Of a stretch of DNA of 64,000 bases, positions 3,082 through 20,001 are shown piece by piece. The stretch lies in assembly GCF_000026365.1 (NCBI RefSeq), contig NC_012991.1, forward strand, positions 1 through 64,000. Direction: 5' to 3'. The notes below the pieces were generated by a model. That model saw nothing but the letters and a program-made list of their open reading frames with translations. It did not search any database and had not been told where the DNA came from. The first letter of the stretch is position 1; the number at the start of each line of letters is the position of its first letter. Made by a program: the position numbers and the translations under genes. The DNA is from Zygosaccharomyces rouxii (lineage: Eukaryota; Ascomycota; Saccharomycetes; Saccharomycetales; Saccharomycetaceae).

Positions 3082-4164
3082 ATGGAATTCGATAAAGAAT
3101 CTCAAAGGCCTGTCTTACCCAAGGACCTTTTTAGAAATGGCTTGACATGGATGTTTTATGAAATTTCGAAGCATCGCTTTCCTTGGGTGGTCTCGTGTCT
3201 ATGCCTGGTCGCTGGATGGGTAGTACTATATGGGAGTAATTATATTTATAAAGATGTGTCTTTGGGTTCCATGATTTCCACTCTTCTCTGGATGCTTGCG
3301 CTTTTACTCCCCTTTTCATGGCTACACAATTCGAAATTGCATCCCAAGATTATGACAGAATTGGTTCAGCAAGTGTTGGAATCGAATCCTGGTGTTGATA
3401 TCGAGAAATGGGACGAAATTGCGAATAGATTAAACTCTTCCTTTTACCAAGAACATTTCTGGAATACACCATATTTTTTTTATGATGGTCAAGGTCTCCA
3501 ACTTTTGTTCAAGGCTAATGTTTTAAGGCCATATCTCGAAGGGAAACTTGACGATATTACCGATACGGACAAGACTCAATCAGCAAGGTGTTATTTGCAA
3601 TCACTAAATGAGAAGTTTGAATTATTATTAAAGAACAATTTGCCAGAAACCGGTTTAAATTCTAAACTACCCAGAGATACCCACAGATATAAACTCTTCT
3701 TTTACCCACAAAGTTTGATCTTCGGATTCTTTATTTGCTGTTTTCAAGGTCTCACTTGGTTTATGATACTACCAGAAATTAAAAGAAAAACATTGTTCGC
3801 CTTGATTATGATCATGTATTACCAGTATATGTCTTTGATATGCTACTGGAGTCTCTATCGTTTTATGGATCCACAGATGGATATAATCCAAACAATGAAA
3901 TGCTTGGCGATAATAGCAAAAGTTAACCCTGGAAAAGAATTGGATAAATGGGACCAAATATCCAAGTATATGAATCAATATTTAACTGAGGAAGAGAAAA
4001 ATGGTCTTTTTAAGAATAGATTTTTTGACGGTAAGCATTGCTTGGACTTTTACAAGACTTGCTTTGAGCCTCTTTCCTTCAGCGATAGTTCTTTGGCATA
4101 CGGCGAGTTAAAAGAGATTGTTGAGATTGTGCAACCAAATGTGAGCGGAGAAACAAATCAATGA
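3082..4164 (+). CDS. COS-type (two-unit DUP) membrane protein
   Basis: At 360 residues this has the full COS layout: two tandem DUP units, each a hydrophobic pair followed by a soluble core. The first core reads NPGVDIEKWDEIANRLN, then TPYFFYDG (about residues 100-135). The second reads NPGKELDKWDQISKYMN, then FFDGKHCLDFY (about residues 278-320). Hydrophobic pairs lie at about 33-75 and 208-255. In S. cerevisiae Cos proteins are subtelomeric, enter endosomes and act as carriers of ubiquitin in trans for vacuolar sorting of surface proteins. The start ATG at 3082 sits in an A-rich context (CAAACATGG). The repeated cores make the family call firm; the exact orthologue is not determinable. Confidence 0.85.
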   Translation: MEFDKESQRPVLPKDLFRNGLTWMFYEISKHRFPWVVSCLCLVAGWVVLYGSNYIYKDVSLGSMISTLLWMLALLLPFSWLHNSKLHPKIMTELVQQVLESNPGVDIEKWDEIANRLNSSFYQEHFWNTPYFFYDGQGLQLLFKANVLRPYLEGKLDDITDTDKTQSARCYLQSLNEKFELLLKNNLPETGLNSKLPRDTHRYKLFFYPQSLIFGFFICCFQGLTWFMILPEIKRKTLFALIMIMYYQYMSLICYWSLYRFMDPQMDIIQTMKCLAIIAKVNPGKELDKWDQISKYMNQYLTEEEKNGLFKNRFFDGKHCLDFYKTCFEPLSFSDSSLAYGELKEIVEIVQPNVSGETNQ

Positions 4165-5270: not shown

Positions 5271-7394
5271 CTAAATACTACTTTGGATGTCTTTAGGCTC
5301 ACAACTCTCCTCATTTAGTGTTAGATTCTCGAATGTTTTCCTCATCAAACATTGGGCATCCGCCTTCTTTCTGTTAAAGCTGTACTTGATACCATCAATG
5401 CACTTGCCATCAGACAAATACCATGTTTCCCAATCTCTATCGGTACAGGTACTTCCGCCAAACACTTCCGAAAAGTCTATTGTGTAAAAGGTATATTCAG
5501 TTGACTGCTTGGTTTTATGGCCTAAACCTACCTCAACGTTGGAACCCCTACTAACAATTTTAATATGAAATGCATCCGTAGGTTCCTCGAGGTGATATTC
5601 TCTCCAATTATTTCCCTGATCCACAGAATAAAAGAATTTCTTCAATGACCAGTCTTGTGGAGAAGTCTTCGGTATAGAAACGATAATATTCCCAAAATCC
5701 AAAAATGCTGCATACACGGGAAATTCAAACACCACTTCCCAAGAAGCACCGCCATCTCGTGAAATAAATGTCATTTCATCGTCGTCATCTAAACTCAGGA
5801 CGTTTTCTCCGACAACACCGGTTTTCATAAGTATACCAGCCGTTGGTTCATTTTCAACTGATGAAAAGTAGGAAGTTTCTTGGAAAGAACAGTGTTCTAC
5901 GTCATCGATATCACAATGAAAACGTTGTTTATGTTTTCCAGAAGGATCTACAACTTTCAAATTGTTCCAAGTTTTCCCATAATCAAAGCTTATTTTACTC
6001 TTGGAAAATCGTTTATACCCGATAAAGGGGAAAGATTCCATGTGAGGGCAGGAATTTTTGTAGAATAAATTATTCCTTATAAATTTAACAATTTTTTGAA
6101 ACCAATTGGTTTTCTCATGAAAATATGTCTCATACATGTTTTCTACTTTGCTCCGATTAAGATCCACGTCAAAACTGAATCTACCCCATATTGTTCCCTT
6201 GAGTTTGTCTAGCTTTTCCAGGTTCACATGGTTCGAGGGTTCTTGTGTTATGGAGTCGAAAAAAGAAAACTCGAGACCAGAAGGATCTGAAACCAACAAA
6301 TGTTTAGATTTACCGTGTCCTTCATTTTCTTCCACATCAGCATATAATAATATCAACTCTGGGTCATATGAGAGTAGTTCAGGAATGCTATTTGGTGAAA
6401 AGACTGCTCCCTTGGGTAGGTGCGCATGTTTAAAAGGCCCGCCCGTAGTAACCCAAATCCTTTCTGCAGTATGATCAAGTTCATTACCTTCTGAACTAAT
6501 TCCTAGAATGTGGGAGGGAAAAATCCATATTTCTTCTGTAGAGAAGTCTTTTAACTCATCAACAAGTTTTGTACTTTGACCAAAATCAGTTGTGTAAAAC
6601 AGGGTACTCATGGTATTTGATACTGGATCGAAGGACTTTTTTTTAAAAAAAGTTTTCTTTTCAATGTCCATACCATATGTATGTGAAAACCATTCTCGCA
6701 TGTTGGTCATCACTTCTACCTTGTGGATACAATAAATGATGTCCCTATCAAGAGTGGAGTCTCTCGATGAAGTGGCGAATTGGCAGGTAGTGCCATGGTA
6801 CTGGAGATCAGGGGTAGCTTCATATTCGTGAACTGGTTCTCCAATACGTCTAAAGCTTTTCCCAGCATCGTCAGAAGCGTAAGCAATACGTTCCATAAAG
6901 GAAGACGAGTCTGGTCTTTTCTTTGAATTGGTTCCAAGTTGGAAATTACCGTGCATAATACTGCAGTGTAGCAATAGAAAATTTGTATTGAACGGATGTG
7001 TCTGCAGAGAACAACGTTCCTTGTCTTCGATTTCCTCTGGTAAAGAAATTTGCTTCCAATTTCTTCCTTGATCTTCCGTGACATGGATTCCTCCAGACTT
7101 GGTCGTTACGAAGGCTCTCTCCTTGTGGAACTGATCAACAATGACCCATGAAATATCTTCCCCAAACACATCGACAGTTTGCCAACTCTTACTGTTATCA
7201 AATGTTATATGTAAACTATCTTCGAAATAAAGCAGTGAAGTATGGGAGTCGCTGAAGGCAGACAAGCCACCGTAATTGACATAATTGGGTTCATGGGATC
7301 TCTCAACATGAGATCTCCATACCCCAGGAACAAACTCCTGGGCTGTTCCTAGAGCCCACAGAGCACAAAATATCAAAAAAAGATACATTTGCAT
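5271..7394 (-). CDS. truncated Vps10-domain protein, predicted secreted
   Basis: The 707-residue product starts with a signal peptide (about residues 1-18) and contains a single Vps10 (sortilin) ten-bladed beta-propeller. Asp-box repeats (S-x-D-x-G-x-[ST]-W type) appear as TEDQGRNW, SDDAGKSF, DYGKTW, SRDGGASW and SVDQGNNW. It ends in the cysteine-rich 10CC module (CTDRDWETWYLSDGKC onwards). Vps10/Pep1 of S. cerevisiae has two such domains, a membrane segment and a cytosolic retrieval tail, in about 1,580 residues. All of these after the first domain are missing here, and the minus-strand DNA past the stop codon does not continue the family. Subtelomeric Vps10 copies (VTH1, VTH2) and half-length relatives are known in S. 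cerevisiae. The open frame is intact, so it may be a soluble, secreted or lumenal ligand-binding protein. The start ATG is at 7392-7394, with a second in-frame ATG two codons on. Confidence 0.85.
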   Translation of the reverse strand: MQMYLFLIFCALWALGTAQEFVPGVWRSHVERSHEPNYVNYGGLSAFSDSHTSLLYFEDSLHITFDNSKSWQTVDVFGEDISWVIVDQFHKERAFVTTKSGGIHVTEDQGRNWKQISLPEEIEDKERCSLQTHPFNTNFLLLHCSIMHGNFQLGTNSKKRPDSSSFMERIAYASDDAGKSFRRIGEPVHEYEATPDLQYHGTTCQFATSSRDSTLDRDIIYCIHKVEVMTNMREWFSHTYGMDIEKKTFFKKKSFDPVSNTMSTLFYTTDFGQSTKLVDELKDFSTEEIWIFPSHILGISSEGNELDHTAERIWVTTGGPFKHAHLPKGAVFSPNSIPELLSYDPELILLYADVEENEGHGKSKHLLVSDPSGLEFSFFDSITQEPSNHVNLEKLDKLKGTIWGRFSFDVDLNRSKVENMYETYFHEKTNWFQKIVKFIRNNLFYKNSCPHMESFPFIGYKRFSKSKISFDYGKTWNNLKVVDPSGKHKQRFHCDIDDVEHCSFQETSYFSSVENEPTAGILMKTGVVGENVLSLDDDDEMTFISRDGGASWEVVFEFPVYAAFLDFGNIIVSIPKTSPQDWSLKKFFYSVDQGNNWREYHLEEPTDAFHIKIVSRGSNVEVGLGHKTKQSTEYTFYTIDFSEVFGGSTCTDRDWETWYLSDGKCIDGIKYSFNRKKADAQCLMRKTFENLTLNEESCEPKDIQSSI

Positions 7395-8011: not shown

Positions 8012-9002
8012 ATGCCCAAAATTGAGAAAGATAGTCTGGAAGATCCCTGTTTTCCTTTTTCTGCCAGCAGATGTTTTCAGATCCCGGTTCATATGGAAGA
8101 TCTATGAAACCATCAAGATTTATCCCTGGGTGGCATCGCAATTTGTCCTTTAAATGTCGTTTTATATCTGATGAAAGAAAATGTAAAAATCTCCGAATCA
8201 TTCATCAGTGTATTTCTTATTTGCCAATTCATAAGCATGGTTTATACTCTATTCCTTCTTTGGTACACACATATAAATTATTCCATACCTTTCCCAAATA
8301 CCGAACTTCTTGGTGACGTTGTTCTAGCAGTTAATCCAGGCGCCGATGCTAGGAAATGGGATATTGTGACGTCCAAAGTGAATAATTCTCATTATGATCA
8401 TGGTTATCGAAGGACACCGTATTACTTTCTCAATAGGTCACATTGTTGGTCTGTTTCTCACCATTATATTTTGAGATTCGATTCTGAGGCTGCTGAACAG
8501 TACAGACAGGCCCCGAACAAACCTTTCAACAACCTTTTAGGAGATGAATCTTCTGATTACGGTTCTCAACTTGGAAGAGAGATTAATTTTACGATAGGGG
8601 CTTCGCTATTCCGGCATTTGGTATGACCTTTTATTATACTGTTCTTGCCTGTATTCATTTATGACGATCAAATAAAACCCAAATATCTTGAGAATATTTA
8701 CAGGGTAATTATTTTTGCTCTAATTTGTCATTCCTTTGTCTCCGTATGCAAAGAAAGTGGTATGGTTAAGTTTAAGACCCTAGGTGTCTTGGATAGAATA
8801 AAGTTTTTAACTACTATAATGCAGCTGGCTCCGGGAAATGACTTGGGAAAATGGGATAACATCGCTAGGTACATGAACTATCATTTATATGTAAAAGGAG
8901 TATGATGGGGGGCCAGAAGAAAACTTTCTCGACGGGAAGGAATGTTCAGACTTGTATAGCTTGCAATTCGAACCTCTACTAATACTTTCCCTTAGTAGAT
9001 AA
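8012..9002 (+). pseudogene. degraded COS gene
   Basis: Pieces of a COS protein are spread over three frames. From an ATG at 8012 the text reads MPKIEKDSLEDP; the frame then shifts to PVFLFLPADVFRSRF and YPWVASQFVL, which matches PVLPKDLFRNG and FPWVVSCLCL of the intact COS gene at 3082. From 8171 it reads a hydrophobic pair, then NPGADARKWDIVTSKVN and RTPYYFLN. From about 8645 it reads the second unit, with LAPGNDLGKWDNIARYMN, a TGA, and a last shifted piece FLDGKECSDLYSLQFEP ending at TAA 9000-9002. At least three frameshifts and several stops are visible. The parent was likely a two-unit COS gene similar to the one at 3082. Confidence 0.85.
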
Positions 9003-9637: not shown

Positions 9638-10384
9638 ATGAGTTTGACTGGAAAGACTGCCCTGATTACTGGTGGAACCAAGAACCTAGGGAAAACCACC
9701 GCTATCGAACTAGCATCAAAACACAAATGCAATTTATTTTTGCACCACAACAGTACGCAAGGTGATGAAGAAACTCTCGCAAAGGAATTGAGAGATAAAT
9801 ATGGAGTTAAAGTTGAATTATACCAAGGAAAGCTAGGTAACCAAGCTTCTTTGACCAAATTGTTCGACACAGCAGTTGAAAAATTGGGAAAAATTGACAT
9901 TGCCGTTAACAATGTTGGTAAAGTGCTAAAGAAACCTGTCGTGGAGGTAACTGAGGAAGAATTTGATCAAATGGACATTATCAACAACAAGATAGCCTTT
10001 TTCTTTATCTCTGAAGCAGGTAAGAAAGTTTCAGATGGAGGACGAATCATTTCGCTCGTCACTTCCTTGCTGGCTGTTTATACACCATTTTATCCAACTT
10101 ATCAAGGAACGAAAGCACCAGTTGAATATTATTCGAAGGCTGCCTCTAAGGAATTGATGGCGAGAAATGTTACTGTAAACTGCGTTGCACCGGGTCCCAT
10201 GGACACTCCATTTTTCTATACTCAAGAAACCCCAGAAGCCGTAGAATTCTACAAGAGTAGCGCATTGCAGCAGAGACTTACTAAAATCGAGGACATTGCG
10301 CCTATTATTAGCTTCTTGGCCACCGAAGGTGGATGGATGACTGGCCAAGTGCTTTTTGCTAACGGTGGGTTAGCTGCAAAATAA
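9638..10384 (+). CDS. short-chain dehydrogenase/reductase
   Basis: This 248-residue protein is a classical SDR, an NAD(P)-dependent oxidoreductase with a Rossmann fold. The cofactor loop is TGGTKNLG (residues 11-18), followed by NNVG near residue 90. The catalytic serine is in the SLVTSLL segment (about residue 140), and the YxxxK pair is YQGTK (about residue 155). The PG-motif after the active site is present (VAPGPMDTPF), and the C-terminal WMTGQVLFANGG ending is typical. A small residue pattern after the first strand (HHNSTQ) leans toward NADP, but this is uncertain. Substrate is unknown. It is followed by a class II aldolase gene on the same strand, which hints at sugar or sugar-acid chemistry. 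Length is normal for the family. Confidence 0.9.
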   Translation: MSLTGKTALITGGTKNLGKTTAIELASKHKCNLFLHHNSTQGDEETLAKELRDKYGVKVELYQGKLGNQASLTKLFDTAVEKLGKIDIAVNNVGKVLKKPVVEVTEEEFDQMDIINNKIAFFFISEAGKKVSDGGRIISLVTSLLAVYTPFYPTYQGTKAPVEYYSKAASKELMARNVTVNCVAPGPMDTPFFYTQETPEAVEFYKSSALQQRLTKIEDIAPIISFLATEGGWMTGQVLFANGGLAAK

Positions 10385-11107
10385 GTTTTGCTACATGGTT
10401 GGCTCTTGATGTGTTTATAGATTTGATTTGTTTTAAGTATCAATTAGTCTGAATGAAAGCGAGAGCACGATCAAAGACACATGATATGACATACATCGCT
10501 TAGAAAACTCAGTAGTTGATCATTTGCTATCTGTGGCATAGTTATGTGCAGGAAAAATAAAGCGTAGGACGTCTTCGAATAAAATGTGTACCTTATTAAG
10601 ACTTTGGAAACAAGTTTAACAATATTTTCAGTTAATTCATGGTTAGTTCATTATATTCATAGACAAACCAAGTCTTCAATTGGGACAACCCTGGACAATT
10701 AAGGTTCTAGTCTTCTATTAGATCTGATGGGGTTAAACCCTACTGGCAATCTCCCATTGTCCGATCTGGGTCCTTTTTCCCAACACCTGTCCTTCAAATA
10801 GCCGAGTCCAGGAAATGAGTGAACATTATCGTATTATCGCTTCCAAGCCAAAGAGCTAGATACAGAGTTTTTTTCATTTCCTCACTCAACTATGGGTTTT
10901 TTTCTTTTTCCTTTCAGTAGATGATTTCACCTCTTTCGGAGGGATGGTTTTACCGCGGTAGAAACTTACCGCGGTCTCCGCAAACCTAGTGTGTACGTCA
11001 AACAAAAGATAGTGGGTTATCTTGTTAAGCGTAGGAATATATAAGAAGACAAAAAGTGACGAATTCAACGATTTCTAACCAAAAAATGAAGTGCCTGGTT
11101 GTGTAGT
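10385..11107. promoter_or_regulatory. aldolase promoter with two ACCGCGGT palindromes
   Basis: A perfect palindrome TACCGCGGTA lies at 10951-10960, and TACCGCGGT follows at 10967-10975. A TATATAAG box lies at 11038-11045. The palindromes are the likely target of a zinc-cluster dimer, and a related GCGCGGTG motif recurs before the permease and the PYD3 genes. The first 500 bases hold nothing else I can identify. Confidence 0.6.
11086..11106 (+). promoter_or_regulatory. upstream ORF before the aldolase start
   Basis: An ATG in a strong A-rich context (AAAAAATGA) opens a seven-codon frame, MKCLVV then TAG. It stops two bases before the first in-frame aldolase ATG at 11108 and is in another frame. 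It lies about 41 bases after the TATA box, so it is within the transcript only if initiation is close to the box. If so, ribosomes would have to reinitiate or skip it. Confidence 0.4.
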
Positions 11108-11986
11108 ATGCTTGCTGCAGAAAGGAGACAAGACAAAATGACGGCAAATTCAGAAGTCGTGGTCAGCGAAAAATCGCATAAGGTTCACAATTTAGCATTC
11201 GGTAATCTGAGTTTCTCTAACGAAAGACCGGTCTTTGAGGACAAAATGCTGGAGAGGCAGCATATCAAAGAGCATATGGCAGGTGCTTTTAGGATTTTCG
11301 GTAGGAGAGGTTACAATGAAGGGCCAGCCGGTCATATGTCGGTGAGAGATCCTGTCGATAAGCACACGTTTTGGATTAATCCTCTCGGAGTACATTTTAG
11401 TGCCATCAAAGTGTCAGATTTGGTTCATGTTGACGCTGACGGACAAATTTTGTCTGATGGGAATCAATCGCCTATAAACGCGGCTGGGTTCAGAATTCAC
11501 GGTGAGCTCCATAAGGCGAGGCCTGATGTAAACGCAGCATGCCATGCCCATACTGTGTATGGTAAAGCATGGGCTGCATTTGGCAAGAAGCTAGATATGA
11601 TTAACCAGGATGCCTGCATTTTCTATAACTGTCATGCGGTCTACGATAATTTTGGAGGCGTCGTTTTTGAAGGAGAAGAAGGTAAAAGACTTGCCCAGGC
11701 CTTGGGAAATAATAAAGCTATGATCCTTCAAAACCACGGACTCTTGACCGTTGGGGAGACAATTGATGAAGCTGGATACTTGTTTGACTTGTTAGAAAGA
11801 ACGTGCCAGGTGCAGCTGCAGGTAGAGATGGTAGCGAAAGCATGTGGTTTCGACAAAAAGATAATTGGGGAAGACGAAGCCGCCTTTACCTATTACAATA
11901 CATCACATCCGGCGGAATTGTATAGTGCATTCCAATCCGATTATAACTTGGAAGTTGATCTTACTGGCAAGCAGTTTTTGCAATAG
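11108..11986 (+). CDS. class II aldolase/adducin-domain protein
   Basis: The protein has 292 residues from the ATG at 11108, or 282 from the ATG at 11138. It is a class II aldolase/adducin-domain member, a family of zinc-dependent enzymes acting on sugar phosphates and related hydroxy-acids. The zinc-binding CHAHTVYG motif lies near residue 138, and a third histidine is in the QNHGLLTVG motif near residue 205. An N-terminal GPAGHMSVRDP segment corresponds to the substrate-binding loop, and WINPLGVHF matches the family's second strand. Fungal members of this length are mostly of unknown substrate. The longest open frame begins at TTG (11099), so the first ATG was used. It lies in a cluster with a zinc-cluster regulator and a permease, and its promoter shares their repeated motif. 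Confidence 0.88.
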   Translation: MLAAERRQDKMTANSEVVVSEKSHKVHNLAFGNLSFSNERPVFEDKMLERQHIKEHMAGAFRIFGRRGYNEGPAGHMSVRDPVDKHTFWINPLGVHFSAIKVSDLVHVDADGQILSDGNQSPINAAGFRIHGELHKARPDVNAACHAHTVYGKAWAAFGKKLDMINQDACIFYNCHAVYDNFGGVVFEGEEGKRLAQALGNNKAMILQNHGLLTVGETIDEAGYLFDLLERTCQVQLQVEMVAKACGFDKKIIGEDEAAFTYYNTSHPAELYSAFQSDYNLEVDLTGKQFLQ

Positions 11987-12201
11987 ATATCGATTCAGGA
12001 AATGATAGGCACATATGATCACCTATGTAGATATCGTACAAAAATATATTCGTTAAATAATTGGCTAAGAAGAAATAACCTCTGCGAGCTTACAACAATT
12101 CATAGTAAAGGATACACATGCAAGACAAAAGTCTCAAAATGCTTACAGGAGGCTGCTGAATAAGTTTATTATGAGAACAAAATAGTTTCGGTGGTCGAGA
12201 C

Positions 12202-14118
12202 ATGCCATCAAAGAGAAGAACACAAAATCAGTACAATGGAATCCCGACAAAACGCAGGAGCGTCACTGGTTGTCTGTCCTGTCGAAGAAGGAGAAAGAAA
12301 TGTGATGAAACCAGACCAAACTGTAAGGCGTGTATTCGCAATTTTCTTGAGTGTATGTGGCCACAAGATCACAATGTAAAGCAAAGTTTACCTTTCGCCT
12401 TATCGAACAAGAAGAAACTTAGTCCTCCGTGCCAACAGGATAAATTAGAGAGCGGATCAGTTGAATTTAATCTGTTTCTTCTCAAAGATGCTAAGTTTTT
12501 GAAACTAAAGAGCTCTTCCGTGCGGATATTCGATGTCCTAATCGCTGACACGAGTAAGGGGGTGATCTTCAGGTACGATTCGCCTGACTGCAATCATAGC
12601 ACTTTATCTGCATTCGAAAGCGATGACGATGTTTACGGTTTATCGACCAACTCGCAGGGATCGGAAGGTTCTAATGATGCATTCACAGAGGATTTTGATC
12701 CTCCCAAAGGTGATGTCAGCTGTGAACATTTGGATTTGCAGGTGGATCCTTTCCCCCAAATCGAAGTACCAAGGAATGCCCTTATCCACCATCCTCACGA
12801 TTCGAATAGTTTTCACGAGGTCCTTGATAATACGAATTTTGCAACGGAGAAAACGTTCGATTCTCTTTTTCGAAGATGCAAAAATAAAGAAATAATTCCT
12901 GATAATGAGTTCAACAACATTGATCTTGAGAATTTTGCGTTTTACGCCTGTATTAAGGGGTATATTCCTAAAATGACGACACAATATACGCACCAAAATC
13001 TAACTACAGCAGCTGCGTTCATTCCCCAACTTGAAAAGAATCCAATAATGCGGGAGGTGTTTCTATGTTGCGGAGCGACATATTTGGCTTGGAATAATTT
13101 GAGGAGGTTTCAAAATATGAGTGACGAATTATATATAAACTGCAAAATTTTGATACAGAACTTCATCGACAAAAATGATAATTACGCGGACGAGGATTGG
13201 CTTTTTGGAGCCCTACAATTATTGTGTAATCGTGATAAGAATGCTCTGACAGCCACGGAAGAAGATGCTAAGTGGCACTTAATGAGGGCGTTTGATATAA
13301 TTCGCCTACGGTATTACGGAAAAGAAGCTAAAAATTTTGAGCTATCGATCATTGACATTATTTCAAATTCCAACCTTATTTTGAGACCAGAAGAAAGAAC
13401 TTTGATTGAAAGTTTTATTTTCCAATATTCCGTGTCAATTCTTTTCATCGAGAAGGTTGATGAATTGCCCAATCCCTTCACAATCTTCAAGATTCTTAAT
13501 GTTGTTCTGAAATGTCGTGTCTACAATTGTGAACACACTGCTGATTGGATGAGCAATCCAATACTGGGCCCTTCTTTGGACTCTTTCGAGCTTTTGGCAA
13601 AATTATCGTATATTGGCCATATGCAACTCCCGCTTAATAGGGAATTGTCTGAACGAGTAGCAAGCTTACGGAAGATGTGTGATTACTATACTCCAGCGGC
13701 TCCCTCAAAGAAAATGACTGATATACAGTGGCAAAACTTTCAAATTAACTCAAAAGCAGGGATAATTACATCAAGAGCTTGCTGGTTATTTGCCTGCAAG
13801 CTTTTGGATTTCGATTCGTTTGATATTAAAGCTCCAGACATTCAGAATGCAGTTAAAAAAGTACTAGATGGTTGTAGGAAAATACCCACAGGTAATAGAG
13901 TTTGGGGTATTTTACCCTGGGCTCTTTTCGTGACTGGTATTTTTGCAGTTGATATCGATGATCGAACATTTATTTTAGGGTTAAACGATATGATGGCAGA
14001 GCGAGCACACAGTTATAATGGCTTCAGAATATCTACATTTTTGCGCAGGGCTTGGGCATCCGATAATGCACCAAACTTTCTATTTGATAGAAGTACTCTC
14101 ACGCGCGTTAACATGTGA
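12202..14118 (+). CDS. Zn2Cys6 transcription factor
   Basis: The 638-residue protein has a fungal binuclear zinc-cluster DNA-binding domain at residues about 24-52, with the six cysteines spaced C-x2-C-x6-C-x6-C-x2-C-x6-C (CLSCRRRRKKC, then CKACIRNFLEC). It is flanked by basic residues (KRRTQ, TKRRS). An acidic, serine-rich linker follows (about residues 130-190). The rest, about residues 200-630, is helical and resembles the fungal-specific regulatory region of the UGA3/ARGR2/LYS14 group. Such factors bind CGG or CCG half-sites as dimers and control nearby pathway genes. It stands between the aldolase and the permease genes on the same strand. ACCGCGGT-type motifs in three flanking promoters, but not in its own 200-base upstream region, make it the likely regulator of the cluster. 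Confidence 0.92.
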   Translation: MPSKRRTQNQYNGIPTKRRSVTGCLSCRRRRKKCDETRPNCKACIRNFLECMWPQDHNVKQSLPFALSNKKKLSPPCQQDKLESGSVEFNLFLLKDAKFLKLKSSSVRIFDVLIADTSKGVIFRYDSPDCNHSTLSAFESDDDVYGLSTNSQGSEGSNDAFTEDFDPPKGDVSCEHLDLQVDPFPQIEVPRNALIHHPHDSNSFHEVLDNTNFATEKTFDSLFRRCKNKEIIPDNEFNNIDLENFAFYACIKGYIPKMTTQYTHQNLTTAAAFIPQLEKNPIMREVFLCCGATYLAWNNLRRFQNMSDELYINCKILIQNFIDKNDNYADEDWLFGALQLLCNRDKNALTATEEDAKWHLMRAFDIIRLRYYGKEAKNFELSIIDIISNSNLILRPEERTLIESFIFQYSVSILFIEKVDELPNPFTIFKILNVVLKCRVYNCEHTADWMSNPILGPSLDSFELLAKLSYIGHMQLPLNRELSERVASLRKMCDYYTPAAPSKKMTDIQWQNFQINSKAGIITSRACWLFACKLLDFDSFDIKAPDIQNAVKKVLDGCRKIPTGNRVWGILPWALFVTGIFAVDIDDRTFILGLNDMMAERAHSYNGFRISTFLRRAWASDNAPNFLFDRSTLTRVNM

Positions 14119-14924
14119 TGTAATGCTTAAAATTATTTCAGCTATATGGGGTAAAACTTTGAACTCATGACTAGGACTATGCGTAACCGCTTCTCTTGAA
14201 AAGAACTGTCTTGCTCCTATCAGAGCAGCATTCTTCTTATAATACGTATTCACGCAGATTCACATGGCAGAAACTCATTTTGTTGGTTATTATAATTTTG
14301 AATAATTTCTGCACGTAATTGGGTTGACATTTGGTATCCGGTCACAGCTTTGGATAGTGAATATTGCTTGTGAATATTTTAAATTTTAACCACTTGCATC
14401 ATATTACACCTCTAGGGTGTCTGATATAAATTAAAGATATTGCAGGCTTCAGTAAGAAGCAGTAGATGATAATATGGACTAGGGAATAGTATATCAGCGA
14501 CATTATGTTACCTATAATCCAGACAGACAATGATGTCTAATGTGAGAATGGAAGCGTAGAGCGCGGCTATCGAGATCATACGCGCGGTTCACGATGGTTT
14601 GTCCACTCACACCGCGTTGTCAGAAATGGCAAGCGAAGACAAATCTTTGGTGGGCGATAAGATACAGATAAGAAAAAAAGAGACAACATATCCGAGCGCA
14701 TGGATTGTCGTAAGCGCGGTGAGTCGGTGCAAGCACGGAAAAATAAAGTTCGCCATTTCCTCACCGCGTATACACAGATTTCAGTAACGTTACCTTGCCC
14801 ATACATCGAACGACCTCTCTGATCTCTTCTTTTTTGGTCTAAAAATCATTATACTGTTCACCAAGTATATAAGAACTAGCTCTTTCAATGGAAGTATGGA
14901 ATAGTTGCTTTTTGAGGGATAGAC
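14119..14924. promoter_or_regulatory. permease promoter with CGCGGT motifs and GATAAG pair
   Basis: Five CGCGG/CCGCG motifs lie in about 200 bases: GCGCGG at 14561, CGCGCGGT at 14581, ACCGCG at 14611, GCGCGGTGAG at 14714 and CTCACCGCG from 14760. Two GATAAG sites lie at 14656-14661 and 14667-14672, which fit nitrogen-regulated control by GATA factors. A TATATAAG box lies at 14866-14873, about 52 bases before the ATG. Confidence 0.6.
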
Positions 14925-16511
14925 ATGGTAAGCGACATGAGTTATAGTGTTAACGATATGGATAAGAAGGAAAACCTCGAAATCACACATGGTCCTGGAG
15001 ACCATGAATTAGGAGATGTTGTGACAATAGACTCTTTTGATGGTATCGACAAAAGTCGGGCAGTCGGGGCAGAATTATTCGAAGAATTGAGTGAAACAGA
15101 GTTAAATGCGGAAGATGCCGGGTACGCAAAGATCAGAAGAAAAATTGATATTTGGCTATTACCGGTGCTGTGCATTACTTATATGCTTCAATTTCTTGAC
15201 AAGTTATCTTTGAATTATGCATCTTCGTATTCATTGAAGGAAGACCTAAAGCTAACGGGTAATGACTACGGCAACATTGCAGCAATATTCAACGCCGGTT
15301 ACATGGTGGGAACAATACCAGGAAATTGGCTAATTCAAAGAGTACCAGTTGCTAAGTTTACTGGAATATCTTTGGTACTTTGGTCCGCCATGTTAATTGG
15401 TCATATCGGCGCAAGAAACTATAATGACATGATGGCCCTCCGATTTTTGCTAGGTCTTATGGAAGCAGCAATTTCCCCTTCAAACATGATGATATGTGGT
15501 ATGTTTTACGATAAACAGGAGCAACCATTCAGGATGTGTACTTTTCTCTCAATGAATGGTGTGGCTACCATGGTGGGTGCTTTACTTGCCTATGGTCTTG
15601 GCCATGCCACGAATGCGGCTTTGAAACCGTGGAAATTAATTTTCCTGGTAATCGGGTTGATTAACTTTGCGTGGTCTTTTGTGTTTCTATACCTCACTCC
15701 GGATTCTCCCGCTAATGCAAGATTTTTAAGTCATGACGAAAGGCTAAAGGTAATTAAACGTGTTTCGAGAAACCAAATGGGTATCAAGGATACGAAATTC
15801 AAGTTTCATCAGGCATTCGAAGCGTTAAAAGATGTCAATTGCTGGATCTTATCCCTTATCGGGTTAGGTTGCGGTGTTATTAATGGAGGGACGTCCAATT
15901 TTATATCTTCGTTAATTAAAGGTTTTGGATTTTCTGGATTAAATGCAACAGCCTTACAATTACCAACCGGTGGTATTGAATTTGTGTGTGTTTTCATCTC
16001 AGGTATGGTGGCGGTAACTACTAAAAAGAATATCAGGACTATATTACTTTTTTTACTTTGTATTCCAACATTAGCTGGGTTAATTGGAATTCATGTAATT
16101 CCATTGGATAAAAAGTGGGCGCTTGTAGGCTGTTCATGGCTACTCTACATTATTGGCGGTCCTGTGATTATGTGTTGGATTTTGATCAACGTAACTGTCG
16201 CTGGATCGTCCAAAATTTCTACTGTAAAAATGGTATGGTTTCTTCTCTACACGGCGGGGAATATTGTCGGATCAGAAATTTTCTATGCTAGGGAAGCTCC
16301 AAAATATGCTACAGGGATGAAAGGATTGATTTCATCATACGCTTGTATGATGTTTCTATCGATAGTGTATTATGCTCTTATGTTTTACAGAAATAAGTCA
16401 AGAGATTCTCATTACGGTAAACTAACTGCTGAATTAGAAAGGGAAGGTATAGTAAACGGATTCAAAGATATGACTGATTTTGAAAATAAACACTTTAGGT
16501 ATGCATATTAA
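14925..16511 (+). CDS. Dal5-type anion:cation symporter (MFS)
   Basis: The 528-residue protein is a major facilitator with about twelve membrane segments and cytosolic N- and C-termini. It belongs to the anion:cation symporter family (Dal5, Tna1, Seo1, Yct1 and relatives), shown by LLPVLCITYMLQFLDKLSLNYAS at the first segment (about residues 82-104), the G-x-RFLLGLMEA pattern near residue 170, and the cytosolic loop with FLYLTPDSPANARFL. In S. cerevisiae these carriers take up allantoate, ureidosuccinate, nicotinate or similar organic anions with protons. Next to a PYD3-type hydrolase, an N-carbamyl amino acid such as ureidopropionate is a natural guess for the substrate, but that is inference. 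Promoter GATAAG and CGCGGT motifs are described above. The ATG at 14925 was used; ATG 14937 is a possible alternative. Confidence 0.9.
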   Translation: MVSDMSYSVNDMDKKENLEITHGPGDHELGDVVTIDSFDGIDKSRAVGAELFEELSETELNAEDAGYAKIRRKIDIWLLPVLCITYMLQFLDKLSLNYASSYSLKEDLKLTGNDYGNIAAIFNAGYMVGTIPGNWLIQRVPVAKFTGISLVLWSAMLIGHIGARNYNDMMALRFLLGLMEAAISPSNMMICGMFYDKQEQPFRMCTFLSMNGVATMVGALLAYGLGHATNAALKPWKLIFLVIGLINFAWSFVFLYLTPDSPANARFLSHDERLKVIKRVSRNQMGIKDTKFKFHQAFEALKDVNCWILSLIGLGCGVINGGTSNFISSLIKGFGFSGLNATALQLPTGGIEFVCVFISGMVAVTTKKNIRTILLFLLCIPTLAGLIGIHVIPLDKKWALVGCSWLLYIIGGPVIMCWILINVTVAGSSKISTVKMVWFLLYTAGNIVGSEIFYAREAPKYATGMKGLISSYACMMFLSIVYYALMFYRNKSRDSHYGKLTAELEREGIVNGFKDMTDFENKHFRYAY

Positions 16512-17104
16512 ATAAGGCGGAATATTGCGGTCCCAAATTATAAGTTTAAGTGAGTGTATAATTTTCTAATTAGCCAAAAATTAGTATTTTCAAGAGTTTT
16601 ATTTTTGCCTTACAAGTCGTTTGAGCAAAATAGAATGGTAAACCTGAAATATTAATCGTTCTTCCTGTCGGCACATCTGTAAATTTTTATTTTTTGTATT
16701 AAAATGCTTAGACAAAGTCGCCAGTTGAAAGAAAGGTTTGTTGTCACCTTTTAATATTGGCCTCTATATATCAAACTACTTTCAAAAAAATTTTATTAAT
16801 GAAACACATTAGATTCAACTGTTGGCGGTTAGCAGCTAGTAGCCTTTAGCATAGAAACCGCCGACTTTGACATATTTTTTTGTAAGTGGGGTAACCCGCA
16901 TCAGCTTTAAGCGGCGACTATAATTTAAGGTTTTACCAGAGAACTTTATTCTTCTTCTGTTAGTCGTACGATCCAATGTCATCAGACTAACTGCAGCAGT
17001 TCGTGATGCTATGAAGAGAGTCGATAACCTCCGCTGATGATGATGACAAACCCTATTTATGTTACCAAAAAATCAGCCTTACAGTTTACTGCGTCTGTTC
17101 AATT
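16512..17104. other. spacer before the PYD3 pseudogene
   Basis: No gene is visible. A GGCGG/CCGCC pair lies near 16825-16862 and again GCGGCGA near 16910, possibly remnants of the pseudogene's promoter. No ACCGCGGT motif is seen here. A TATATA sequence lies near 16765. Confidence 0.35.
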
Positions 17105-18254
17105 ATGTTGTCATATCTACCTAAGGTTGTGAAGATAGCAGTGAGTTCGACGTCTAAATTGGACAACGGACGTCTGAATGAAACTATTTTGAAAATTGGG
17201 TGGATACCAAGGACTATTAAATGATCAAGAATTGTTTCATCAGAGAATTTTACTCAGATTTCATCTTTCTTCACATGATAATACTTTCCTAGCAGAAATA
17301 AAGATTGACTTATTGCTATTGATTCTCATTTTGATACAGAACCAGCTACAGGTAAATATGGCGGTACCTGAAGTATTAAGAACCTCTAAGGAAATTAAAC
17401 TTGCTCTAAACTATGAGGTTTATGCGGTTGTTGATTTAATGAAGATAGTTCGCAGTTTGCTAGAACATTTATGAGCCCGAAAGTCAGGGCAAACACCCTT
17501 TTTCTCTCGGAAACTCAGGACTGCGAGTCTACCAACGAGTCCAAGATTATCTGTGTAGTCTTGGCTGCGCAGCTGACACCAATAACTTGGATGCACGTTT
17601 TGCACTTCAGATTGAACAAGGACATGTTTTTGAAGGGAAAAGTTAAAAATTTATAATGCCACTGATGTTCAAGCATACAGGTGGAAACGAATTACTGTCG
17701 ACAGAGGCCGCGTATTTACAAGGAAGACTCCATGGCGGTACAAGCGATGTTGAGAGGGGGGGATTCCGGGTTATTCGCATGTGGAACAGTGAAAATCCAG
17801 TCTTTCTTGATTAACAGATTCCAAACGAGGTGAGTTTCACTTTGGATATTAGGCATGACCAAGACAAAAAAATGGATCGAATGTACTTGGAAACGAGAGA
17901 AATTTTTGATATATTGGTCCAGAAAAATGAATTGTGCCTATTCAATTATACTTTTGAGTTTTTCTGGTCTTGAAAGCTGTTTCTTTCCACACTAGGTACA
18001 CGATGTGTATTTCTTATGTCACTAGTTGTCAATTTAATGAGGAAAACACTAGAGAAAGTTCCTTTGATGTAGGACATGGTTTTTGCAGTACGTCGAAGCA
18101 TAACGACACAGGTATGATTTTCATCCCATCCTTGATTGGTCTCTCTCACAAGTATAATGAATGTTCTTTCCCTGAAAAGATCAAGAATGCGTTCAAGATT
18201 CTTTTGAAATCTGTTGCTAAACAGGATGACCTAAGACGGAAAAAAGGTTTCTGA
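17105..18254 (+). pseudogene. decayed tandem copy of the PYD3-type gene
   Basis: Fragments collinear with the intact gene at 18691 are spread over all three frames. From ATG 17105 the text includes NGRLNETILKIGWI (intact: SGRLNQKIIETGKLF). Near 17360 it reads VPEVLRTSKEIK and NYEVY (intact: LEVLRTFKENNYVPNYDV). Near 17600 it reads LQIEQGHVFEG (intact: LHIEQGPVLED). Near 17820 it reads IPNEVSFTLDIRH, and the end reads GMIFIPSLIGLSHKYNE to the stop (intact: SMIFIPSKDGVSHNYYE). Many frameshifts and stops are present, and the metal-binding regions around the first histidine and the EE motif are lost. It is shorter by roughly 160 bases. The better preserved 3' third suggests decay by several small deletions after a tandem duplication. 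Confidence 0.92.
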
Positions 18255-18690
18255 TTAGTGCTATGCGCTGCTGGCTCTCACTCTATTTAACCTGCTCTAT
18301 GTCGTCAGCGGTTGATTGCTTTAGCGCGGTGTCGCAGAAAATGGTGCCGCGTCGGCGATCTTAGCGCAGTACCGCGGTGTCAGTCTGATCAAAAGAATTG
18401 ATATTCAACACCTATCTTCAACACTTCTCTTGGGAATCGCGGTTTCCTTGAATGCTTTGACAGGGTTTCTTTAGCGCGGTGATAGCATAGCGGTTTTTTT
18501 CTGTCAATTGGAAGACAAGTACAACAACCACGGACAAATAGACGATTTGATAATTTGGCGGATGGTATAAAAGATGGCAAGAAAGCACTTGGTCTCACAA
18601 CCATGGCTTTTGCTAAAACATAGCAACCAAAACGTTTAAGCAACATTTTCCATTCGAACTTCCATCAGAAAATAACAATCTGTCAAAAAC
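18255..18690. promoter_or_regulatory. PYD3 promoter with repeated TTAGCGCGGT motif
   Basis: TTAGCGCGGTG occurs at 18321-18331 and again at 18471-18481, and a variant TTAGCGCAGT at 18361 runs into ACCGCGGTG at 18371. CCGCG at about 18347 and CGCGGT at 18438 add two more. A TATAAAA box lies at 18566-18572. A short ATG frame at 18603 (MAFAKT, stop) lies 31 bases after the box and is probably outside the transcript. Confidence 0.65.
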
Positions 18691-20001
18691 ATGGTGATCC
18701 CAATAGTAGACACTCTTTGTATTCAATCCGGTAGATTAAATCAAAAGATTATCGAAACGGGGAAGCTTTTTGGTTCTATTGCCCGCTGGGGAACAGAAGA
18801 GCACCAGTTCGGGATGAGAAGACTTGCAGGTACGGCTGTGGATGGAGAAATGAGAAATTGGTTTGTTGAACAATGCAAATCCTTGGGCTGTAAGGTAAAC
18901 ATTGATGAAATTGGTAATATTTTTGCAATTTTTGCAGGCAAGAATAAAGGTAAGCCCACAGCAATGGGCTCTCACCTTGATACACAGCCTGAAGCAGGGA
19001 AGTATGATGGCATTCTGGGAGTTTTGGCTGGTTTAGAGGTATTGAGAACTTTCAAGGAAAATAATTACGTTCCTAACTACGATGTGTGTGACATATGTTG
19101 GTTTAATGAAGAAGGTGCCCGCTTTTCTCGCTATTGTATGGGATCAAGTGTATGGGCACATAATTTAAGCTTGAAAGAGGCATATAAAATCAAATCAATC
19201 ACTGACACAGTTCCAGAAACAGTTTATGAGTCCTTGAATAATATTGGCTACTTGGGTTCAGCGCCTGCAAGTTACCTTGAGAATGAAATTGATGCTCACT
19301 TTGAGTTACATATTGAGCAAGGCCCCGTTCTAGAAGACGAAAAAAAGAAAGTTGGTATAGTCACTGGGGTTCAAGCATGTTACTGGGAGTTATTCACGGT
19401 CAAAGGAGATGCTAGCCATGCAGGGACAACCCCGAGAAGATTAAGAAGAGACGCTATGTTAATGGCTTCAAGGATGATATTGAAAGCGGAAGAAATTGCA
19501 GAAAAAAGAGGAGGCTTGTTTACCTGCGGCGTAATCGATGCTAAACCTTATTCGGTTAACATCATTCCCAATGAAGTATCATTCACGTTAGATTTCAGGC
19601 ATGTGTCTGATCAAATTTTGGCCGAAATGCTCTCAGAAACAAAGGCTGAGTTTGACATATTAGTTGAGGACAACCGCAATGGTCCCTTGAGCTGGACGTC
19701 GAAAGTGTTAGTGAGTACACCAGTCGTTAAATTCAATGAAAAATGTATTGAGTGTGTGACAAAAGCAACGCAAAGTTTATTCGAAACAAACGATGTAAGA
19801 GAAATATGGTCGGGAGCTGGTCATGACTCATGCCAAGTTAATTTTCGTGTCCCAACTTCGATGATATTTATTCCTTCTAAGGACGGAGTATCCCATAATT
19901 ATTATGAGTTTTCATCACCACAAGAAATTGAAAATGGCTTCAAAGTATTATTAAAAACACTCATGAACTATGATTCCTATAGGTCAGAGAGAGGGTATTG
20001 A
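18691..20001 (+). CDS. PYD3: PYD3-type beta-alanine synthase / N-carbamyl-amino acid amidohydrolase
   Basis: The 436-residue protein is an M20-family, di-zinc amidohydrolase closely resembling Pyd3 (beta-alanine synthase) of Lachancea kluyveri, which hydrolyses N-carbamyl-beta-alanine to beta-alanine, CO2 and ammonia in pyrimidine breakdown. Metal and catalytic residues are in place: H95 in GSHLDTQPEAGKYDG with D106, E140-E141 in FNEEGARF, H207 in LHIEQGP and H378 in GAGHDSC. The dimerisation/substrate domain carries SHAGTTPRRLRRDA and IPNEVSFTLDFRH. The N-terminus is about 25 residues shorter than L. kluyveri Pyd3 as I remember it. S. cerevisiae lacks this gene. No dihydropyrimidine dehydrogenase or dihydropyrimidinase is in the window, so the substrate may be an imported carbamyl compound, probably through the neighbouring Dal5-type permease. 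The fold is certain; exact substrate is inferred. Confidence 0.93.
   Translation: MVIPIVDTLCIQSGRLNQKIIETGKLFGSIARWGTEEHQFGMRRLAGTAVDGEMRNWFVEQCKSLGCKVNIDEIGNIFAIFAGKNKGKPTAMGSHLDTQPEAGKYDGILGVLAGLEVLRTFKENNYVPNYDVCDICWFNEEGARFSRYCMGSSVWAHNLSLKEAYKIKSITDTVPETVYESLNNIGYLGSAPASYLENEIDAHFELHIEQGPVLEDEKKKVGIVTGVQACYWELFTVKGDASHAGTTPRRLRRDAMLMASRMILKAEEIAEKRGGLFTCGVIDAKPYSVNIIPNEVSFTLDFRHVSDQILAEMLSETKAEFDILVEDNRNGPLSWTSKVLVSTPVVKFNEKCIECVTKATQSLFETNDVREIWSGAGHDSCQVNFRVPTSMIFIPSKDGVSHNYYEFSSPQEIENGFKVLLKTLMNYDSYRSERGY

What the first reader, a model, noticed from the sequence alone, without database searches (positions are those of the whole stretch)
9638..20001. PYD3-centred accessory catabolic cluster with its own regulator
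Seen: an SDR, a class II aldolase, a zinc-cluster factor, a Dal5-type permease, then a broken and an intact PYD3-type hydrolase, all on the plus strand over 10 kb. Known: Pyd3 hydrolyses N-carbamyl-beta-alanine; Dal5 relatives carry ureido acids. Inference: a pathway that imports a carbamyl amino acid, hydrolyses it for nitrogen and uses aldolase and dehydrogenase for the carbon part. No dihydropyrimidine genes are near, so it differs from the known pyrimidine pathway.
Basis: partly seen in the sequence, partly recalled or inferred. Interest (0 to 1): 0.8.

Follow-up and report, generated by a model that had tools for sequence, protein, structure and literature searches.

The report
Yeast chromosome-end nitrogen-scavenging gene cluster
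Near a contig end this yeast carries a small gene set (a transporter, a nitrogen-releasing hydrolase, a probable oxygen-using decarboxylase and a probable regulator), three of whose promoters share a DNA signal, which looks like a private pathway for using an unusual carbamoylated amino acid.

Summary
The genes are real and placed as described. The genome (9.76 Mb, 7 contigs, probably Zygosaccharomyces rouxii) also holds a canonical PYD3, a dihydropyrimidinase-family gene, a DUF1688 gene and a UGA1-type transaminase elsewhere, so this Pyd3 is an accessory paralogue. It falls in a supported clade apart from L. kluyveri Pyd3, catalytic residues kept. The broken copy is an older, different paralogue. 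The 'aldolase' lacks FucA's catalytic Glu and is closest to TqaM and NovR, oxidative decarboxylases. New: CGCGGT elements crowd the promoters of decarboxylase, permease and Pyd3-like gene (10 sites there, 3 in the rest of the 64 kb), none before SDR or regulator; two of the genome's four convergent CGCGGT pairs (spacing up to 30) lie here. In relatives, contig lengths suggest regulator and Pyd3-like genes share a contig in three other genomes, and locus tags put a Pyd3 paralogue within three genes of the decarboxylase gene in two Lachancea; my prediction that the regulator would sit there failed. Best reading: an inducible four-gene regulon for scavenging an N-carbamoyl amino acid. SDR membership is unsupported and the substrate unknown. 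Nothing here shows function directly.

The parts
10950..10977 (.). two palindromic ACCGCGGT elements, 16 bp apart, 138-154 bp before the annotated ATG of the decarboxylase gene
11108..11986 (+). class II aldolase-family protein of the TqaM/NovR type, probable iron oxidative decarboxylase; the database copy of this protein (282 aa) starts 10 codons later
12202..14118 (+). Zn2Cys6 factor with Fungal_trans_2 domain; proposed regulator of the cluster
14583..14768 (.). four CGCGGT elements before the permease gene, one convergent pair at 14583-14616
14925..16511 (+). MFS permease, probably of the ACS (allantoate permease) family
17114..18251 (+). decayed Pyd3-type gene, an old paralogue nearest to clade D or C of the family, not a broken copy of the intact gene
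18325..18480 (.). four CGCGGT elements (one of them palindromic) before the Pyd3-like gene
18691..20001 (+). intact Pyd3-like amidohydrolase of paralogue clade B
9638..10384 (+). SDR; neighbour, membership of the cluster unsupported (no CGCGGT before it)

Best explanation
An accessory, inducible nitrogen-scavenging regulon near a chromosome end, made of four genes: a permease imports an N-carbamoyl (ureido) amino acid, probably a substituted beta-ureido acid; the Pyd3-like enzyme hydrolyses it to amino acid, CO2 and NH3; the TqaM-type enzyme removes the carboxyl carbon oxidatively from the resulting or a related hydroxy acid; and the Uga3-type zinc-cluster factor switches the three structural genes on through CGCGGT elements. 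Shown here: gene identities, kept catalytic residues, loss of the aldolase Glu, the paralogue clade, the shared element. Inferred: that this factor binds the element, the order of steps, the class of substrate, and that the genes form one pathway.
For: Pyd3-like protein aligns over its full length to 1r3n; the 11 metal and substrate positions checked are all kept (positions recalled). Window clade supported 100/98, apart from the clade with L. kluyveri Pyd3 (98/94). CGCGGT: 10 sites in the promoters of decarboxylase, permease and Pyd3-like gene against 3 in the rest of the window; 0 of 1000 shuffles reach the count in each of the three. Convergent pairs of CGCGGT at spacing 0-30: 4 places in the genome, 2 of them here, reversed control 1. 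Linkage elsewhere: regulator and Pyd3-like proteins share identical longest-contig lengths in three cases (44932, 6966, 15969), 0 of 5000 jittered lists reach three; Pyd3 paralogue and decarboxylase gene 1-3 genes apart in L. dasiensis and L. nothofagi, 3 of 14 tag pairs where 0.022 is expected. PMC4589623 (passage) gives the Uga3 site as SGCGGNWTT, whose core fits CGCGG.
Against: No expression, binding or growth data. CGCGGT was picked after the fact as the most enriched word. The full Uga3 site occurs once in the three promoters. None before the regulator's own gene or the SDR; GATAA nitrogen-control words are not enriched (2.96 against 3.6 per kb). Divergent and direct pairs of CGCGGT are not in excess over their reversed controls. 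The prediction that the regulator's relatives lie between hydrolase and decarboxylase in Lachancea failed: 0 of 13 tag pairs on one chromosome. 11 of 14 Lachancea pairs are unlinked. No Pyd3-like gene lies near six bacterial relatives of the decarboxylase. No contig length is shared by regulator and decarboxylase lists apart from the own-genome one. The shared contigs could not be read.
Confidence: 0.48

Rival explanations
1. The intact gene is simply a second dose of ordinary beta-ureidopropionase (N-carbamyl-beta-alanine to beta-alanine) for dihydrouracil use or pantothenate supply; the neighbours are incidental.
For: About 69% identical to L. kluyveri Pyd3, catalytic and substrate positions all kept; the genome has a dihydropyrimidinase-family gene and a UGA1-type transaminase to complete the route.
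Against: A canonical-clade copy already exists at C1:319154. The window clade departs from the canonical clade at 15 otherwise nearly fixed positions, among them W268R unique to it; at several of these the window shares the outgroup's residue, so they may not mean a new substrate. Promoter element shared with decarboxylase and permease. The one CGCGGT in the 19 kb around canonical PYD3 is at C1:314939, over 5 kb away.
Confidence: 0.2
2. The genes are chance neighbours in a fast-changing chromosome-end region, each with its own role.
For: Window starts at a contig end, with DUP-family genes; a decayed gene within the array; partial linkage only in relatives; the decarboxylase occurs widely in budding yeasts, mostly without known linkage.
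Against: Shared element in three of the promoters; linkage statistics in relatives.
Confidence: 0.17
3. A pathway around alpha-hydroxy-beta-amino acids: the hydrolase frees such an acid from its ureido form and the TqaM-type enzyme turns it into an alpha-amino acid one carbon shorter.
For: TqaM turns 3-amino-2R-hydroxy-3-methylbutanoate, a beta-amino acid, into AIB (PMC11880133, passage); Pyd3-type enzymes release beta-amino acids; bacterial relatives accept side chains at alpha and beta positions (PMC10952681, passage). Z. rouxii CECT1232 grew slowly on AIB (PMC10169451, section read).
Against: The window enzyme is only a distant relative of TqaM (233.8 bits) and NovR works on aromatic acids; other members of the subfamily are uncharacterised here; no substrate evidence.
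Confidence: 0.1

Closest known systems
L. kluyveri Pyd3, beta-alanine synthase (PDB 1r3n)
   Same: Full-length homology, kept metal and substrate residues.
   Different: Separate paralogue clade; next to regulator, permease and decarboxylase; genome has its own canonical copy.
TqaM (PDB 9m09, 9m0a), iron decarboxylative oxygenase of the AIB pathway; NovR (9ryg)
   Same: Best solved relatives of the 'aldolase' (233.8 and 190.7 bits); Gly or Ala in place of the aldolase Glu in the alignments shown.
   Different: Those serve biosynthesis of secondary metabolites; here the gene sits in an apparent catabolic cluster.
UGA regulon (Uga3, UGA1, UGA4) of S. cerevisiae
   Same: Zn2Cys6 factor with Fungal_trans_2 domain and CGG-type promoter elements (PMC4589623 and PMC12186702 passages).
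   Different: Different structural genes, clustered with their factor; full Uga3 sites rare here.
DGD1-DGD2, AIB-use gene and zinc-cluster regulator at a Saccharomyces subtelomere, related to Zygosaccharomyces genes (PMC10169451; abstract and sections 9 and 11 read)
   Same: Same style: rare nitrogen source, enzyme plus own zinc-cluster regulator near a chromosome end in the same yeast group.
   Different: Different enzyme (dialkylglycine decarboxylase) and a Cha4-type regulator.

Membership tests
Pyd3-type beta-alanine synthase / M20 carbamoylase | full-length homology to 1r3n and above the cut-off of TIGR01879 | tested here: met
   (334.8 bits, cut-off 204)
Pyd3-type beta-alanine synthase / M20 carbamoylase | metal ligands, catalytic Glu and substrate-binding Gln, His, Asn, Arg kept (numbering recalled) | tested here: met
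   11 of 11 positions identical in the window protein
Pyd3-type beta-alanine synthase / M20 carbamoylase | belongs to the clade of characterised L. kluyveri Pyd3 | tested here: not met
   window clade of 11 rows (100/98) apart from the 25-row clade with 1r3n (98/94)
Pyd3-type beta-alanine synthase / M20 carbamoylase | hydrolyses N-carbamyl-beta-alanine | not testable with these tools
   needs an assay
class II aldolase (FucA type) | catalytic Glu73 | tested here: not met
   Gly in the window protein and in the 9 relatives aligned; invariant Gly in 20 relatives
class II aldolase (FucA type) | metal-binding His triad (His92, His94, His155 of FucA; recalled) | tested here: met
TqaM/NovR oxidative decarboxylase | closest by sequence among solved structures | tested here: met
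TqaM/NovR oxidative decarboxylase | iron- and O2-dependent decarboxylation | not testable with these tools
   needs an assay
Uga3-type regulon | Zn2Cys6 + Fungal_trans_2 factor | tested here: met
Uga3-type regulon | SGCGGNWTT sites in target promoters | tested here: inconclusive
   SGCGG cores 4, 5 and 7 in the three promoters, but the full site only once among them
gene cluster conserved in relatives | the same gene set together in another genome | tested here: inconclusive
   pairs only, from tags and contig lengths; permease and SDR not tested

The most novel reading that the evidence does not exclude
A new eukaryotic catabolic route in which a Pyd3 paralogue frees an alpha-hydroxy-beta-amino acid (for example isoserine, from a damaged or hydroxylated dihydropyrimidine) from its ureido form and a TqaM-type iron enzyme converts it into an alpha-amino acid one carbon shorter (for example glycine), under a dedicated zinc-cluster switch. 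It would join enzymes of pyrimidine breakdown and of AIB biosynthesis in one pathway for oxidised-pyrimidine salvage.
Probability: 0.08. Interest if true: 0.8.

Novelty: new variant of a known kind. Interest (0 to 1): 0.45.

Why it matters
Pyd3 paralogues outside the clade of the characterised enzyme, and TqaM-type proteins widespread in budding yeasts, appear to have no assigned role in the papers I searched. A cluster that ties both to one permease, one regulator and one promoter element makes their function directly testable by growth on a panel of ureido acids, and would add an example of dedicated scavenging of a rare nitrogen source to the DGD1-DGD2 precedent in the same yeast group.

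Tried and rejected
Bacterial gene neighbourhood of the decarboxylase: one scan gave 6 loci (83 stretches matched a pattern, 6 confirmed); none of the 6 has a Pyd3-like gene, and the Pfam domains of 10 neighbour proteins in two of them gave no lead.

Other targets of the element: the other convergent pairs, at C6:650551 and C7:60014, lie in intergenic stretches next to genes without an evident link to nitrogen use. Single sites near other genes (one at C1:961045, about 300 bp before the matched part of the UGA1-type gene) were seen but are single.

Prediction noted before the search: regulator orthologues at LANO_0A02872 and LADA_0B06568. Result: LANO_0C00540 (41%) and LADA_0F14136 (28%). Rejected.

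Contig-length match 3163 between hydrolase P0077 and decarboxylase P0183: 1357 of 5000 jittered lists give at least one such match, so not used.

Placing the decayed copy by tree: end branch 6.58, so unsure; by identity over 270 columns nearest to P0036, P0040 and P0041 (clade D, 41.5%), by summed tblastn bits nearest to P0018 (clade C, 236 bits).

Papers: searches found none; some searches gave listings only, apart from the papers named in this report, of which I saw passages or the sections named. In the 12 rows shown the word Zygosaccharomyces does not occur.
Full report
Place. The window is bases 1-64000 of contig C2 of a genome of 9,764,635 bases in 7 contigs. Its second Pyd3 gene (C1:319154-320461) encodes a 472-residue protein that by eye is nearly identical to P0035, named ZYGR_0A01780 of Zygosaccharomyces rouxii; I therefore take the genome to be Z. 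rouxii (inference). The cluster lies 9-20 kb from the contig end, beside genes with a DUP domain (463-1326, 3082-4164, 8171-8626). I saw no simple telomere repeat in the first 600 bases, so 'near a chromosome end' rests on the contig end and its neighbours.

Genes. The decarboxylase-type gene is the only one of its family found in the genome. The regulator has one clear paralogue (C7, 40% over residues 374-620). The permease's nearest paralogue is 33% identical, and the SDR's 28%.

Hydrolase. The best solved relatives are L. kluyveri beta-alanine synthase entries (705.6 bits). In an alignment of 47 proteins the 11 positions that I recall as metal ligands, catalytic Glu and substrate contacts are all kept in the window protein; among the others one protein of 46 departs (Lys for Glu159, in a related clade). 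PMC10952681 (passages) names Gln, Glu, His and Arg contacts in a bacterial relative; I did not align that protein. The tree shows four groups: A, 25 rows with L. kluyveri Pyd3 and the C1 copy (98/94); B, 11 rows with the window copy (100/98); C, 4 rows (99/98) with LANO_0A02828 and LADA_0B06524; D, 3 rows (100/99). Fifteen positions nearly fixed in A differ in the window's own subgroup, W268R being unique to it; at several of the others (such as 169, 175 and 405) the remaining clades and outgroups share the window's residue, so there it is A that is derived.

Decayed copy. Its pieces are 41.5% identical to the three clade D proteins over 270 columns, 39.7% to P0018 (clade C), 37.4% to the window copy and 34.1% to the C1 copy; by summed tblastn bits P0018 leads. 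It is an old, separate paralogue. In another genome a clade B and a clade D protein (P0003, P0040) and a regulator relative (P0247) report the same longest contig length, 44932, which suggests that a two-hydrolase arrangement is ancestral (inference).

'Aldolase'. The best solved relatives are TqaM (233.8 bits), an unnamed class II aldolase-fold protein 9n43, 4xxf and NovR (190.7 bits). Glu73 of E. coli FucA aligns with Gly in the window protein and the 9 relatives, while the three metal His are kept (Glu73 and His roles recalled). TqaM performs decarboxylative oxidation of 3-amino-2R-hydroxy-3-methylbutanoate to AIB (PMC11880133, passages; PMC12192607, passages). I infer an oxidative decarboxylase, not an aldolase. 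4xxf is deposited as a fuculose-1-phosphate aldolase, a name I did not check.

Promoters. Of 6-letter words in the cluster's intergenic DNA, ACCGCG/CGCGGT is the most enriched (13 counts in 3716 bases against 2 in 16,680 of other intergenic DNA). Palindromes count twice: there are 10 places, 2 before the decarboxylase, 4 before the permease, 4 before the hydrolase. None lies before the SDR, the regulator or the decayed copy. 0 of 1000 dinucleotide shuffles of each of the three stretches reach the observed count; the word was chosen after looking, so these figures are generous. Genome-wide, convergent pairs with spacing 0-30 occur at 4 places, 2 of them here (control 1). Divergent pairs occur at 4 places, 1 here (control 5), direct pairs at 6 places, 1 here (8 matches, control 13), so those two arrangements show no excess. 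The palindrome ACCGCGGT occurs 38 times (reversed control 60), 3 of them here. The Uga3 site SGCGGNWTT (PMC4589623, passage) shares the core, but the full site occurs once in the three promoters.

Linkage elsewhere. No contig of a related yeast could be read; I used contig lengths and locus tags. Regulator and hydrolase lists share three longest-contig lengths (44932, 6966, 15969); 0 of 5000 jittered lists reach three, mean 0.057. Among five Lachancea with both genes listed, 3 of 14 hydrolase-decarboxylase pairs lie within 4 genes (LADA_0B06524 with 06502 and 06590; LANO_0A02828 with 02894), expected 0.022 with 5000 genes (all tags are 12 modulo 22, so steps of 22 are taken as one gene). Two of the three pairs share one hydrolase, and the two species may share one event. 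The linked hydrolases belong to clade C, not to the window's clade B. 0 of 13 pairs with regulator relatives are on one chromosome.

Rest of the pathway. Elsewhere in the genome: a gene above the D-hydantoinase cut-off (C6:1007655, 414.7 bits), a DUF1688 gene (C5:447882; URC4-type by recall), and a GABA-transaminase-type gene (C1:961347, 788.4 bits). They lie among unrelated genes (for the first two). So the genome can probably run the ordinary routes without this cluster.

Verdict. A regulator-linked accessory catabolic cluster is the best reading, with four genes and not six; its substrate is open. It is a new variant of a known kind: metabolic genes near a chromosome end with their own zinc-cluster factor, as in DGD1-DGD2 (PMC10169451, abstract and sections 9 and 11).

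Noticed in passing
5271-7394 (-): A 707-residue Vps10/sortilin-domain protein, apparently short and without an evident membrane anchor at its end; Vps10-type receptors are usually about twice as long (recalled).
   Followed up: no
463-1326, 3082-4164, 8171-8626: Three proteins with DUP domains near the contig end, the last only 151 residues and perhaps a fragment.
   Followed up: no
9638-10384: The SDR passes the cut-off of bacterial model PRK12744 and its best solved relative is 3ksu, deposited as a 3-oxoacyl-ACP reductase; its nearest own paralogue is only 28% identical. Bacterial origin possible, not tested.
   Followed up: no
G000:C7:60012-60033: The other place in the genome with a closely spaced double ACCGCGGT palindrome, between a 372-residue protein gene and an SH3-domain protein gene.
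   Followed up: partly
G000:C1:961045: A single GCGCGGTA about 300 bp before the matched part of the UGA1-type gene, as a Uga3-type factor might use.
   Followed up: no
P0017, P0022, P0130, P0134, P0135 (Lachancea): A further Pyd3 paralogue clade (C) next to TqaM-type genes in two Lachancea; L. dasiensis has two TqaM-type genes around it.
   Followed up: partly
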